Source: a virus. From it: a stretch of 38,546 nucleotides of DNA. The notes under the pieces were generated by a model, which did no database searches, was not told the origin of the DNA, and saw nothing but the letters and a program-made list of their open reading frames with translations. Made by a program: the position numbers and the translations under genes. How positions within the stretch are numbered: position 1 is the stretch's first letter; the number at the start of each line of letters is the position of its first letter. The DNA is taken from positions 1 to 38,546 of the IMG/VR virus record IMGVR_UViG_3300038701_001190. The stretch is one strand, 5' to 3'. Below, one piece after another: positions 30,095 to 37,210 of this stretch.

Positions 30095-30441
30095 ATCCAG
30101 CAACCGCAATTATCGTACGCGAAATCCGCAAGTTTCAGAAGGAACACGGGCTGACAATGAAGGCCGTGTCAGTCGGCGCTGGGCTCTCCCAGCCCACCGT
30201 CGCGAGCTGGTGTCGCGGTCACTGCGGTTCGACGCCTCGCACCCGCCACATGGTCCGCCAGTACATGCGGGAATATTCACGGAACGCCCCCAAGGCTCGC
30301 CAGGTCGAATGGGATGACGAGTTCGTCAGCGCCTACCAGAGCGCCCACGCCTTCAAGGTGGAGACGCCGGTTCATCCCGGCGTGTTCCAGCGCCTTGTCG
30401 CGCCGGTGCGGAAGCTGTTCAGCCGTGGAGCAGCAGCATGA
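30091..30441 (+). CDS. HTH DNA-binding protein (XRE-like)
   Basis: A 116-residue protein starting at ATG 30091. The N-terminal half has a helix-turn-helix (VREIRKFQKEHGLTMKAVSV, then GAGLSQPTVASWCRGHCG), the second half is basic and helical (TRHMVRQYMREYSRNAPKAR, LVAPVRKLFSRG). Following a Cro-like gene in the same transcript, it is a CII-like or second-repressor candidate. The longer frame from 29950 is not used. Confidence 0.78.
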   Translation: MNPATAIIVREIRKFQKEHGLTMKAVSVGAGLSQPTVASWCRGHCGSTPRTRHMVRQYMREYSRNAPKARQVEWDDEFVSAYQSAHAFKVETPVHPGVFQRLVAPVRKLFSRGAAA

Positions 30442-30443
30442 CC

Positions 30444-30866
30444 TCACCTGACACACTCCCCGGCAGCGGCTCTGAGCCGTTCGCGGACAACCACGGGAAC
30501 CACCCGGAACCATTTTGTCAGCAGGTCGGCATGGCAGGCCCGAAGCATGGCTTCCGACAGGTCCACGCCGCCCGACCGGCACAGGGCGACGGGACGGCCC
30601 CATCGGTCGGTGTCCACCACGTCACAGACCACGGCCCCACGGACCTGCCTCCGTATGTGATCGGTCGCCTCTTTCCCGCCACTGGCACCCCGCTCGGGCG
30701 CGTCGATACCGAACAGCCGAACCCGCACCTTTCCGAACGCGATGGTGTCTCCGTCCACGACACGTGGCGTCCCGCCTATCTGACCGACACCACCCTCCGC
30801 GAAGACTGGCGCATGGGTGAATACGACGACGACCAGCATGAACAGCGGCGGGAACAGGCGGATCAC
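30444..30866 (-). CDS. Secreted thermonuclease-like (SNase) protein, opposite strand
   Basis: From GTG 30866 the protein has 140 residues. Residues 1-23 form a signal peptide (core LFMLVVVVFTHAPVFA), then a staphylococcal-nuclease domain: VVDGDTIAF with Asp40, VRLFGIDAPER with Arg50, Asp55 and Glu58, and TDRWGRPVALC with the second catalytic Arg. All key residues are present, except that Thr41 of the S. aureus enzyme is Ala. It would digest nucleic acid in the periplasm or outside. ATG 30839 is an alternative start. It lies on the strand opposite to the surrounding operon, like a moron gene. Confidence 0.75.
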   Translation of the reverse strand: MIRLFPPLFMLVVVVFTHAPVFAEGGVGQIGGTPRVVDGDTIAFGKVRVRLFGIDAPERGASGGKEATDHIRRQVRGAVVCDVVDTDRWGRPVALCRSGGVDLSEAMLRACHADLLTKWFRVVPVVVRERLRAAAGECVR

Positions 30867-30989
30867 GACCGTCCCAATCTTCTCAGTTGGGCGCGCCTCA
30901 AGTGGGCTGCGTTCTGGATCGCGGCGTTCATCGGCGCAAGCGTCGTCGGCTTTGTCTTCGGCGTGATGATTGTCCGCTCGTTTCTCTGA
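30813..30989 (+). CDS. Small membrane protein downstream of the HTH genes
   Basis: A 58-residue protein, with an acidic/charged start (GEYDDDQHEQRREQADHDR) and one strong transmembrane helix (KWAAFWIAAFIGASVVGFVF, then GVMIVRSF). The same frame is open from ATG 30438, which has an ATGA overlap and GGAG site, but that upstream part is the complement of the nuclease gene. I favour the short form. The overlap of its start with the start region of the divergent nuclease gene suggests the latter was inserted here. Confidence 0.5.
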   Translation: MGEYDDDQHEQRREQADHDRPNLLSWARLKWAAFWIAAFIGASVVGFVFGVMIVRSFL

Positions 30990-31004
30990 CATTGGAGGCG
31001 TATA

Positions 31005-33395: not shown

Positions 33396-33556
33396 CCCCA
33401 CCTGCCGACATACCCACCCGGTTCATGGCCGACTGGCTGTGGCGCTGTCTGGTGGAGTGCAACGAATCCGGCATCAAGGACGCTGTGCCGTTCTACGCCG
33501 CCCGGCTGAAGGCCGTGATGAATGACCCCCGATACATGGACAGGGAGGCCGCTTGA
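33392..33556 (+). CDS. Small helical protein before the replication gene
   Basis: A 54-residue protein from ATG 33392 (ATGA overlap with RusA). It is one long amphipathic helical segment (RFMADWLWRCLVECNESGIK, then DAVPFYAARLKAVMNDP). Its stop shares TGATG with the replication gene. No family recognised. The upstream frame from 33347 is a shadow. Confidence 0.65.
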   Translation: MTPPADIPTRFMADWLWRCLVECNESGIKDAVPFYAARLKAVMNDPRYMDREAA

Positions 33557-34302
33557 TGGACTGGTTGCGCCTTTGGCACGACATGCCCACCGACCCGAAA
33601 TGGCGGGTTATCGCCCGCAAGAGCGGCAGGACGATCCCCGAGGTCATCGCCGTCTACACGCACATGATGGTTGCCGCCAGTCAGGCAGAGGAACGCGGCA
33701 CACTGAGTTCATGGGATGACGAAGACGTGGCCGCTGCCCTGGACATGGACGATGACGCGGTGACCGCGATCCGCAACGCGATGCAGGGGAAGGTTCTGGA
33801 CGGCGAGACGCTGCGCGGGTGGGCCAAGCGCCAGCCCCGCAGGGAACGTGATGACGACTCCGCCGAACGGGTGCGCAGGCACCGGGAACGCAAGCGAAAT
33901 CAGGAAGATAGCCAAGGCGTTACCGATGATGAAACGCCATCCGATGAGGCTGTAACGCCATGTAACGCCACGAAACGCCCAGATAAGAGTAGAGAAGAGA
34001 AGATAAGAAAGAAGAACCCCCCTACCCCCCTTTCGAGGGGGGAGCGACTGCCTGCCGACTGGATCCTGCCCGATGACTGGCTGGCATGGGCGAAGGGCGA
34101 GGGGCTGAACGAAGCCACCATTCGGGGCGAGGCGGACAGGTTCCGGGACTACTGGCGAGCGCAACCCGGCGTGAAGGGGCGGAAACTCGACTGGCTGGCG
34201 ACCTGGCGCAACTGGTGCCGAACCGTGAAGGACAGGCAGAAGCCCCGTGACGGCCCACTGAGTGCGAACGGGCTGGGTATCCCGGATCTGACCAATGCGT
34301 GA
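33556..34302 (+). CDS. Phage replication initiator-like / DnaT-like protein
   Basis: A 248-residue protein with GGAGG eight bases before ATG 33556. The N-terminal domain (MDWLRLWHDMPTDPKWRVIA, then IPEVIAVYTHMMVAASQAEE) is the winged-helix opening typical of phage replication proteins; the middle is a charged linker of low complexity (residues 88-155); the C-terminus (LPADWILPDDWLAWAKGEGL, then FRDYWRAQPGVKGRKLDWLA, TWRNWCR) is DnaT-like. It is followed by the primase-helicase genes, so it probably loads or recruits the helicase at the phage origin. Confidence 0.8.
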   Translation: MDWLRLWHDMPTDPKWRVIARKSGRTIPEVIAVYTHMMVAASQAEERGTLSSWDDEDVAAALDMDDDAVTAIRNAMQGKVLDGETLRGWAKRQPRRERDDDSAERVRRHRERKRNQEDSQGVTDDETPSDEAVTPCNATKRPDKSREEKIRKKNPPTPLSRGERLPADWILPDDWLAWAKGEGLNEATIRGEADRFRDYWRAQPGVKGRKLDWLATWRNWCRTVKDRQKPRDGPLSANGLGIPDLTNA

Positions 34303-34642
34303 CCTGCTGAACAAGGCGCGGATCGAATGCCCGGCCACCGATGGCGACCACCGGACCACGTGTCCCGAGTGTTCCCCTCACCGGCGGAAAAAGCGGGACA
34401 AGTGCCTGAGCGTGACGATCTCGGCAGGCACCCTGCTTGCCCACTGCCACCACTGCGGATGGAGCCATGGCGATGACGAACGAAGCGACAGACTGGATAG
34501 AGGCGCGGGGCATCGACAACGAACTGGCGACCGCAATGGGCATCGTCGGGATGAGAGGCAAGTCGGGCAAACTTGGCGTCGTGCTCCCGTATCGCAAGGG
34601 TGGCGAGCTTCTGGGCCGAAAGTACCGGCTTCTCGACGGTGA
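34295..34642 (+). CDS. Primase zinc-binding domain, separate frame from the helicase
   Basis: A 115-residue frame. Residues 12-57 are a T7 gp4-type zinc finger: Cys23 and Cys26 (TTCPECSPHRR), then Cys51 and Cys54 (LLAHCHHCGWS). Beyond residue 58 the protein is an Arg-rich tail, read out of phase with the primase-helicase. In T7 this finger recognises the template for primer synthesis and is part of one protein with the Toprim domain. Here the Toprim domain begins one frame away (+1) right after the finger, so either the two act as separate proteins or a frameshift joins them. Confidence 0.65.
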   Translation: MRDLLNKARIECPATDGDHRTTCPECSPHRRKKRDKCLSVTISAGTLLAHCHHCGWSHGDDERSDRLDRGAGHRQRTGDRNGHRRDERQVGQTWRRAPVSQGWRASGPKVPASRR

Positions 34643-35873
34643 CCAGCGGTTCACGGCGGACAAGGGCTGGACCCGCGATCTGTGGAACGTGGACTGCCTG
34701 TACGACGCCACCCTGAGCGATTGCCCGGTCGTCATCACCGAAGGCGAATTCGACGCTCTGGCCTGTATCCAGGCGGGTTCCGTGCGGTCGGTTTCGATCC
34801 CTGATGGCTGGACCGAAGGATTGGAGACCGTCAACGGAGGGGCGAAGATGGAACCGCTGATCCGCAACGAGACGGCGCTGCGCAACAGCCCGCACGTCGT
34901 CATCGCGGCGGACAACGATCCGGTCGGTCATTCCTTCCTGAAGGCGGTTTCGAACCTTTTGGACGGGCATGACGTGCGCTGGACCAGGTGGCCGGATGGG
35001 TGCAAGGACGCCAACGACGTGCTACGGGAGCATGGCGAGGGCAGCCTGGCGAAGTGCTTGCAGGAGGCCAAGCCCGTCAACCCGGCAGGATCGATCATCA
35101 CCGGGGTGTCCGACATTCCGCCGCGCCCGAAGCGGATGCTGCTGAAAAGCGGTGTCCCGGCGGTGGACCGGATCAGCACCTTCGAGGTCGGGGCAATCTC
35201 CGTCCTGACCGGCGTTCCCGGCATGGGCAAATCGACCTTCGCCACATGGCTCGCGCATCGGATCGTGAAGAACCACGACGTGCGCTGTGCGCTGCTGATG
35301 ATGGAAAGCCACCCCGAGCGGGTGCGGAAGCAGCTTGCCTGTCTGGAGACCGGCAGCGCCTTTCCGAAGGACATCGATTTCGTGCATGAGAAGCTGGACC
35401 GCAACTGGCGCATCGTCCAGCTTGACGAGACCTTCGATGACGCCTTTGAACTCGGCTGGCTGCGCGGTGTCATTCACACGCTTGCGGTTCGGGACCAGTG
35501 CAAGCTGATCGTCATCGACCCGTGGAACGAGATCGAGCACTTCCCGGCGCAGGGCGAAAGCCTGACCAACTACATCAACGCGGCCCTGACGATGATCCGC
35601 AAGTGGGCGGCGAAGTTCGACTGTCACATCATGATCGTGGCGCATCCCAAGAAGATGCAGGACGACAAACCGCCCCTTGGATACGACATAGCCGACAGCG
35701 CGGCGTTCATGAACAAGCCCGCCATGGGCATGACGATCCACCAGACCGAGACCGAGTTCCAGGTCATCGCGTGGAAGGTCCGGGACGCGGAAGCCTACGG
35801 CTGTCAGCGCGGGCGTATCCGCATGGAATTCGACCCCGGAAAACTCTGTTACAGGGAGATGCTAGGCGGATGA
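34473..35873 (+). CDS. Primase-helicase (Toprim plus DnaB/T7 gp4-like helicase)
   Basis: A 466-residue protein from ATG 34473, eight bases after GGAG. The Toprim primase part has VVITEGEFDALACIQ and the acidic VVIAADNDPVG, then KDANDVL. The RecA-like helicase part has Walker A VLTGVPGMGKSTFATWLAH, MESHPERVR, Walker B-like KLIVIDPWNEI and the sensor IMIVAHPKK. It unwinds DNA and primes the lagging strand. It corresponds to the T7 gp4B form, without the zinc finger, which is encoded just before it in another frame. Confidence 0.9.
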   Translation: MTNEATDWIEARGIDNELATAMGIVGMRGKSGKLGVVLPYRKGGELLGRKYRLLDGDQRFTADKGWTRDLWNVDCLYDATLSDCPVVITEGEFDALACIQAGSVRSVSIPDGWTEGLETVNGGAKMEPLIRNETALRNSPHVVIAADNDPVGHSFLKAVSNLLDGHDVRWTRWPDGCKDANDVLREHGEGSLAKCLQEAKPVNPAGSIITGVSDIPPRPKRMLLKSGVPAVDRISTFEVGAISVLTGVPGMGKSTFATWLAHRIVKNHDVRCALLMMESHPERVRKQLACLETGSAFPKDIDFVHEKLDRNWRIVQLDETFDDAFELGWLRGVIHTLAVRDQCKLIVIDPWNEIEHFPAQGESLTNYINAALTMIRKWAAKFDCHIMIVAHPKKMQDDKPPLGYDIADSAAFMNKPAMGMTIHQTETEFQVIAWKVRDAEAYGCQRGRIRMEFDPGKLCYREMLGG

Positions 35874-37135: not shown

Positions 37136-37210
37136 GCGGGGGTAGTTCAACGGACAGAGCCCCAGCCTTCCAAGCTGGTGACGTGGGTTCGATTCCCACC
37201 CTCCGCTCCA
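37136..37210 (+). tRNA. tRNA-Gly (anticodon TCC)
   Basis: A 75-base cloverleaf. The acceptor arm GCGGGGG pairs with CCTCCGC (one G-U pair), the D arm carries TAGTTCAACGG, the anticodon arm is CCAGC-CTTCCAA-GCTGG with anticodon TCC, and the T arm is GTGGG-TTCGATT-CCCAC. The terminal CCA is encoded. All stems close. It reads GGA (and GGG by wobble), codons that are minor in a GC-rich host favouring GGC. It is the only tRNA found. Confidence 0.97.

What the first reader, a model, noticed from the sequence alone, without database searches (positions are those of the whole stretch)
34295..35873. Primase zinc finger and Toprim-helicase in different reading frames
An intact four-Cys T7-type finger ends at residue 57 of one frame; one frame over, a GGAG-preceded ATG starts the Toprim-helicase at once. 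In T7 the two are one protein. Options: separate proteins acting in trans, a +1 programmed frameshift giving both gp4A- and gp4B-like forms, or a one-base assembly error. The 58-residue Arg-rich tail on the finger looks like non-selected sequence.
Basis: partly seen in the sequence, partly recalled or inferred. Interest (0 to 1): 0.65.

Follow-up and report, generated by a model that had tools for sequence, protein, structure and literature searches.

The report
Split phage primase with overprinted tail
In a large, old group of phages the zinc finger that lets the replication primase read DNA is encoded as its own small protein, whose end is written in a second reading frame inside the helicase gene, so the one-base frame offset seen here is a conserved gene arrangement and not an error.

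Summary
A four-Cys primase finger (34295-34642) and a T7 gp4/Twinkle-type Toprim-helicase (34473-35873) lie one frame apart. It is no assembly error: 216 distinct relatives keep finger and helicase as separate ORFs, 213 with this +1 offset, including isolated Bradyrhizobium phage BDU-MI-1, whose finger is unannotated. Against 109 fused relatives the split loci form one side of a single tree branch (trees on reduced sets). The helicase has its own start, usually with a Shine-Dalgarno site inside the finger gene, like T7's 56-kDa form. Programmed frameshifting is not supported: no conserved slip site, and three loci keep the parts separate without the offset. In the window's own clade only openness of the frame is shown. 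Best reading: two overlapping genes, with the finger working in trans on a gp4B-like ring. The trans action is inferred.

The parts
33553..34302 (+). upstream replication-initiation protein gene; its end overlaps the finger start by 8 nt
   Evidence: phrog_3729 replication initiation protein E 1.5e-31; phrog_1408; coordinates
34295..34642 (+). finger gene: 115-aa protein, primase zinc finger plus overprinted tail
   Evidence: 24 of 38 finger proteins match phrog_47 DNA primase, best E 2.7e-8, the window's own does not at E 0.1 (weak E 0.2 match)
34361..34456 (+). metal-binding core, Cys23-x2-Cys26 ... Cys51-x2-Cys54 (Cys37 at least 90% conserved)
   Evidence: invariant or nearly invariant columns; AF2 residues 1-60 pLDDT 72-88
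34457..34642 (+). tail of the finger protein: 61 residues after the last Cys and the stop; mostly overprinted on the helicase 5' end
   Evidence: frame kept open in the family; low model confidence
34461..34464 (+). GGAG, Shine-Dalgarno-like site of the helicase, inside finger codons, 8 nt before ATG 34473
   Evidence: 137 of 199 split loci have such a site against 9% background
34473..35873 (+). Toprim-helicase gene, gp4B-like, 466 aa, frame +1 to the finger (alternative ATG 34467)
   Evidence: phrog_239 DNA primase/helicase E 2.1e-60; AF2 model best PDB match T7 gp4 5ikn, E 1.7e-24
34473..34642 (+). 170-nt overlap of the two genes
34731..35024 (+). Toprim domain with EGEFD and AADND motifs
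   Evidence: PF13155 E 1.7e-8; invariant columns
35190..35660 (+). RecA-like helicase core with Walker A GVPGMGKST
   Evidence: PF13481 E 2.6e-12, PF03796 E 7.7e-7

Best explanation
Two overlapping genes replace one T7 gene 4. Gene A makes a small finger protein: the primase zinc finger plus a C-terminal tail of at least about 32 residues (at least 50 in the window's clade). Gene B starts at its own ATG inside gene A, one frame over, usually with a ribosome site made of finger codons, and makes the Toprim-helicase, an analogue of T7's 56-kDa gp4B. The frame offset persists because the end of gene A is overprinted on the start of gene B: the other frames would end gene A at the helicase start or fuse the two. 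Shown here by sequence: conservation of the split, offset and starts; one branch separating split from fused; purifying selection on the tail frame. Inferred: the finger binds the helicase ring in trans and gives the primase template recognition, the tail helps it do so, and the split began with a frame change in the linker of a fused ancestor that already had an internal start.
For: Of 440 sequences, 325 were classified: 216 split, 109 fused; 212 split loci have the +1 offset and L419 also has it at the junction, so 213 of 216. Split is one side of one branch (84 split and 46 fused rows, support 99; 42 and 28 rows, SH-aLRT 95). ATG/GTG/TTG start in 199 of 212, with a Shine-Dalgarno-like site in 137 of 199 against 9% background. 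Finger-frame stops in residues 5-30 after the last Cys: 0 against 88 expected, shortest tail 32; first 25 overlap codons: 2 against 74, fused control 137 against 151, third frame 115 against 82. Clade-specific minima of 82, 32, 50, 44, 36 and 43 residues. One clade: Trp in the last two residues in 18 of 27 against 1.5 expected; the overlapping Gly codons are GGT in 24 of 29 against 197 of 1189. L250, kin of that clade but with a non-overlapping tail, still ends KRGW. In L003 an HNH gene starts between finger and helicase and the finger tail overlaps it instead. Toprim residues are invariant in 15 aligned members.
Against: No protein data exist. In the window's own clade third positions are not more conserved inside the overlap than outside and the C-terminus is only weakly basic (14 of 28 against 6.9), so there only openness of the frame is shown. 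Ten loci read for it lack a canonical helicase start near the junction; seven have near-cognate codons there and three (L149, L168, L340) have none. Neither Foldseek nor PDB sequence searches tie the finger significantly to a solved primase finger. Trans priming was not tested.
Confidence: 0.83

Rival explanations
1. Programmed +1 frameshifting in the overlap makes a fused gp4A-like primase-helicase, besides the gp4B-like form from the internal start.
For: The +1 offset is kept in 213 of 216 split loci through length changes of 3n between finger and start. Three loci have no obvious start for the helicase. T7 uses both a full and a short form (PMC12593628, section 4 read).
Against: No conserved slip sequence: 155 different 11-mers at the junction of 199 loci, and no raised third-position conservation in codons 12-40. 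L011 and L250 end the finger at the helicase start, and L003 has a whole HNH gene in between. The finger frame is kept open well past any sensible slip point and in one clade has a conserved own C-terminus. A shift at the junction would give almost no linker, whereas fused relatives have about 28 residues or more.
Confidence: 0.07
2. The finger frame stays open for a translational or RNA reason (ribosomes must not terminate near the helicase start), and the tail peptide itself does nothing.
For: The tail sequence is lax in several clades, including the window's.
Against: L011 and L250 terminate the finger right at the helicase start and still carry a 44- and a 34-residue tail. Minima are clade-specific, up to 82 residues, far beyond a ribosome footprint. 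One clade conserves a C-terminal Trp.
Confidence: 0.1
3. The small protein is no primase subunit but a separate zinc-ribbon regulator that happens to sit before the helicase.
For: The finger's best Pfam and Foldseek matches are generic zinc ribbons, none significant for the window's protein.
Against: Its profile finds the N-terminal finger of fused primase-helicases (mostly 45-90 bits) in the same reading frame as the helicase; 24 of 38 members match phrog_47 DNA primase; Toprim residues of the partner are invariant, so a primase lacking its own finger remains.
Confidence: 0.07
4. A one-base sequencing or assembly error, or a decayed gene.
For: None beyond the look of the single locus.
Against: Same arrangement in 213 of 216 split loci from many samples, in bacterial genome contigs and in an isolated phage.
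Confidence: 0.01

Closest known systems
Bacteriophage T7 gene 4 primase-helicase (63-kDa gp4A, 56-kDa gp4B)
   Same: Zinc finger, Toprim and RecA-like helicase in the same order; helicase form from an internal start with its own ribosome site; best structural match of the helicase (PMC12593628 section 4 read)
   Different: In T7 the finger is fused in frame to one of the two forms; here it is a separate ORF in another frame with an overprinted tail
phrog_239 DNA primase/helicase, and fused phage relatives such as L019-L065
   Same: Helicase homology at 25-31% identity, same finger type
   Different: Finger and helicase in one reading frame with a linker of about 28 residues or more
Twinkle mitochondrial helicase
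   Same: Same Toprim-helicase architecture
   Different: One polypeptide; the human enzyme has lost primase activity (start of the abstract of PMC9860392 seen)
T4 gp41 helicase and gp61 primase
   Same: Priming and unwinding divided between polypeptides (title and start of the abstract of PMC10359460 seen)
   Different: In T4 the whole primase is separate (recalled); here only the finger is, and the genes overlap

Membership tests
T7 gp4-type primase-helicase | Toprim domain with catalytic acidic residues joined to a RecA-like hexameric-helicase core | tested here: met
   Pfam Toprim_2, AAA_25, DnaB_C; invariant EGE-x-D and D-x-D columns; 5ikn E 1.7e-24
T7 gp4-type primase-helicase | Zinc finger in the same open frame as the Toprim domain | tested here: not met
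   Different frames in the window; 213 of 216 split relatives share the offset
T7 gp4-type primase-helicase | A finger-less form from an internal start with its own ribosome site | tested here: met
   Start in 199 of 212, Shine-Dalgarno-like site in 137 of 199; sequence evidence only
T7 gp4-type primase-helicase | Hexamer formation and template-directed primer synthesis | not testable with these tools
   needs purified proteins
Programmed +1 frameshift gene | Conserved slip sequence in the overlap | tested here: not met
   155 distinct 11-mers in 199 loci; no third-position excess in codons 12-40
Programmed +1 frameshift gene | Fixed frame offset between the two parts | tested here: met
   213 of 216; also expected from overprinting
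Programmed +1 frameshift gene | Downstream part depends on the shift, with no start of its own | tested here: not met
   199 of 212 have ATG/GTG/TTG at the junction
Overprinted overlapping gene pair | Selection against stops in the second frame across the overlap | tested here: met
   0 against 88, 2 against 74 with fused control 137 against 151
Overprinted overlapping gene pair | Sequence constraint on the overprinted peptide | tested here: inconclusive
   Third-position identity raised in clades 0, 1, 3 and 5, not in the window's clade 2; C-terminal Trp conserved in clade 1

The most novel reading that the evidence does not exclude
A whole lineage of phages has turned the primase's DNA-reading finger into a detachable, separately dosed subunit. 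Its overprinted tail, made from the helicase's own 5' codons, docks the finger onto the Toprim-helicase ring, so the phage sets how many of the six subunits prime by protein ratio instead of by fusion, as T7 is thought to do with gp4A/gp4B mixtures.
Probability: 0.35. Interest if true: 0.82.

Novelty: new variant of a known kind. Interest (0 to 1): 0.62.

Why it matters
It offers a natural test of whether the primase finger can work in trans, since evolution appears to have cut gp4 at that point and kept it cut. It is also a statistically clear overlapping gene in phages that annotation overlooks: in the isolated phage BDU-MI-1 the finger ORF is not annotated, and no Pfam or NCBIfam family clearly covers it. 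Primase-helicases of such phages annotated from the helicase alone lack their finger on paper.

Tried and rejected
Assembly error: rejected by homologues. Programmed frameshift: looked for a conserved slip site and for raised third-position conservation; found none. 'Tail is unselected': tested by permuting synonymous codons and rejected for the family. A generic 'at least 32 residues' rule first looked universal; clade analysis showed different minima, so a single-cause idea such as ribosome exit-tunnel length was dropped. Biased charge or composition of the tail against simulated tails: nothing consistent. Known family for the finger: Pfam, NCBIfam, PDB sequences and Foldseek (a weak T4 primase match at E 1.7) gave no convincing match; PHROGs gave phrog_47 for 24 of 38. 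Literature: seven searches listed no paper that, by title or start of abstract, describes a split or overprinted gp4; passages of PMC9198812 and PMC12593628 were read. The library holds open-licence papers only, so this does not show that none exists.

Numbers kept apart: the class counts are not prevalences, because the loci were found by similarity to split helicases and fingers and most scans kept only the best 80. Of 440 sequences (the window and 439 loci; L001, a copy of the window, had been removed), 100 were duplicates, 13 had no finger found (10 of these contigs begin inside the helicase; L093, L096 and L260 do not; list), 1 had no helicase, 1 lacked the four-Cys pattern, 325 were classified. 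L419 was scored as an exception and moved after reading its frames: its helicase changes frame downstream, and the junction is +1.

Full report
What is in the sequence. The window is an IMG/VR virus record of 38,546 bases with terminase, portal, head and amidase genes on the left and a replication module near the right end. There, a replication-initiation protein gene (33553-34302, phrog_3729) overlaps by 8 nt the ORF 34295-34642, which encodes 115 residues with C-x2-C...C-x2-C. One base over, a frame open from 34416 encodes a Toprim domain and a RecA-like helicase up to 35873. The conserved helicase start is the ATG at 34473, 8 nt after GGAG, and not 34467.

Homologues. The helicase was searched in viral and genome contigs, its alignment and the finger alignment in viral contigs, and three further helicases in viral contigs. 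Two reading frames or one were scored by profile searches of all forward frames. In one search, 440 sequences gave 325 distinct classified loci: 216 split and 109 fused. Of the split ones 212 have the helicase one base after the finger frame, 3 have the other offset and 1 is in the same frame but separated. Reading L419 showed that its helicase changes frame downstream and that its junction is the usual one; so 213 of 216 have the +1 offset. The three true exceptions still keep two genes: L011 and L250 end the finger at the helicase start, and in L003 an HNH endonuclease gene (PF13392, E 5.5e-17) begins at the junction and the helicase follows with a 4-nt overlap. Class counts are not prevalences, since loci were found by similarity to split members.

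One isolated phage, Bradyrhizobium phage BDU-MI-1 (KY940711), has the same arrangement; its record annotates the helicase only, and the finger lies in the gap before it and runs into it. This and the breadth of samples exclude an assembly error as the cause. In the tree of helicase sequences the split loci are one side of one branch (84 split and 46 fused, local support 99, FastTree; 42 and 28, SH-aLRT 95, IQ-TREE). The root is not inferred; since T7 gp4 is fused I infer that the split is derived.

How the helicase is started. Of the 212 split loci left after setting aside L003, L011, L250 and L419, 199 have ATG, GTG or TTG at the junction (174, 18, 7); 137 of those 199 have at least four bases of AGGAGG 4-11 nt before it, against 9% for other such codons in the same genes. 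The distance from the last Cys to the start is mostly 19 or 22 nt and always 1 mod 3. Ten loci without a canonical start were read: seven have a near-cognate codon (ACG, CTG, ATT or ATC) in place, three do not (L149, L168, L340). These three are unexplained. T7 also makes a 63-kDa and a 56-kDa form, the latter from an internal start with its own ribosome site, and a mixture couples unwinding and synthesis better than the long form alone (PMC12593628, section 4 read).

The tail. For the family this is wrong. Permuting synonymous codons within each helicase gives the number of finger-frame stops to expect. In 77 representatives the first 25 codons of the overlap hold 2 stops against 74 expected; the same frame in 69 fused relatives holds 137 against 151, and the third frame of the split loci 115 against 82. 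In 121 representatives of the larger set, residues 5-30 after the last Cys hold 0 against 88, residues 30-35 hold 4 against 18, and residues 35-50 hold 64 against 59; the shortest tail among all 216 is 32 residues. Residues 50-80 are again low (66 against 148), which the clade analysis explains: clades differ in their minimum, 82, 32, 50, 44, 36 and 43 residues in clades of 72, 34, 31, 29, 18 and 16 loci (these clades were not thinned). The window belongs to the clade with minimum 50 (1 stop against 38 expected in residues 0-50) and has a 61-residue tail.

Is the peptide sequence itself constrained? In four clades fourfold third positions are more conserved inside the overlap than after it; in the window's clade they are not. 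In one clade the tail has Trp within its last two residues in 18 of 27 representatives against 1.5 expected, and the helicase Gly codons that create it are GGT in 24 of 29 cases against 197 of 1189 in these genes. L250, whose nearest kin are of that clade but whose tail does not overlap the helicase, ends in KRGW. So in that clade at least the finger protein appears to end at its own stop. The model of the window's finger is fair for residues 1-60 (pLDDT 72-88) and poor for the tail.

What the proteins are. The helicase matches phrog_239 DNA primase/helicase (E 2.1e-60), and its predicted structure matches T7 gp4 (5ikn, E 1.7e-24) and Twinkle. Toprim acidic residues and the K-D-A-N-D motif are invariant in 15 aligned members; I take from this that primase chemistry is kept, which would need a finger. 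The finger profile also finds the N-terminal finger of fused relatives, and 24 of 38 finger proteins match phrog_47 DNA primase; the window's own finger does not at E 0.1, and solved-structure searches are not significant.

Mechanism. Most likely the phage makes two proteins from overlapping genes: a finger-plus-tail protein and a gp4B-like ring. The finger joins the ring in trans and supplies template recognition; the tail probably helps it bind. The two genes and selection on the tail frame are shown by sequence; joint function and docking are inferred. Frameshifting that fuses the two is unlikely: the junction sequence is not conserved (155 different 11-mers in 199 loci), third positions are free in codons 12-40, and three loci cannot do it. 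I give it 7%.

Known or new. The parts are known; the arrangement is a new variant. Seven searches of the open-licence library listed no description of it.

Noticed in passing
L003 4585-5004: An HNH endonuclease gene (PF13392) begins exactly at the finger-helicase junction of an otherwise typical member; the finger tail now overlaps the HNH gene instead of the helicase.
   Followed up: partly
L259 (KY940711.1, Bradyrhizobium phage BDU-MI-1), about 2293-2625: Unannotated finger ORF ahead of and overlapping the annotated primase/helicase in an isolated phage.
   Followed up: yes
L149, L168, L340 (junction region): Helicase frame has no canonical or near-cognate start near the junction; how the helicase is started there is unknown.
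   Followed up: partly
clade 0 loci such as L142, L159, L171: Finger-frame tails of 82-181 residues overlap the helicase, with raised third-position conservation to about codon 110; possibly a larger overprinted domain.
   Followed up: partly
window 30444-30992 (-) and 30438-30989 (+): A staphylococcal-nuclease-like ORF (PF00565, E 7.3e-6) on the minus strand lies almost exactly opposite a 183-aa plus-strand ORF.
   Followed up: no
window 37136-37210 (+): tRNA-Gly (TCC) gene near the right end of the contig.
   Followed up: no
plasmid NZ_OY725970.1, 3850 bases: A very small Bacteroides finegoldii plasmid record carries a distant primase/helicase of this type, 28.5% identity.
   Followed up: no
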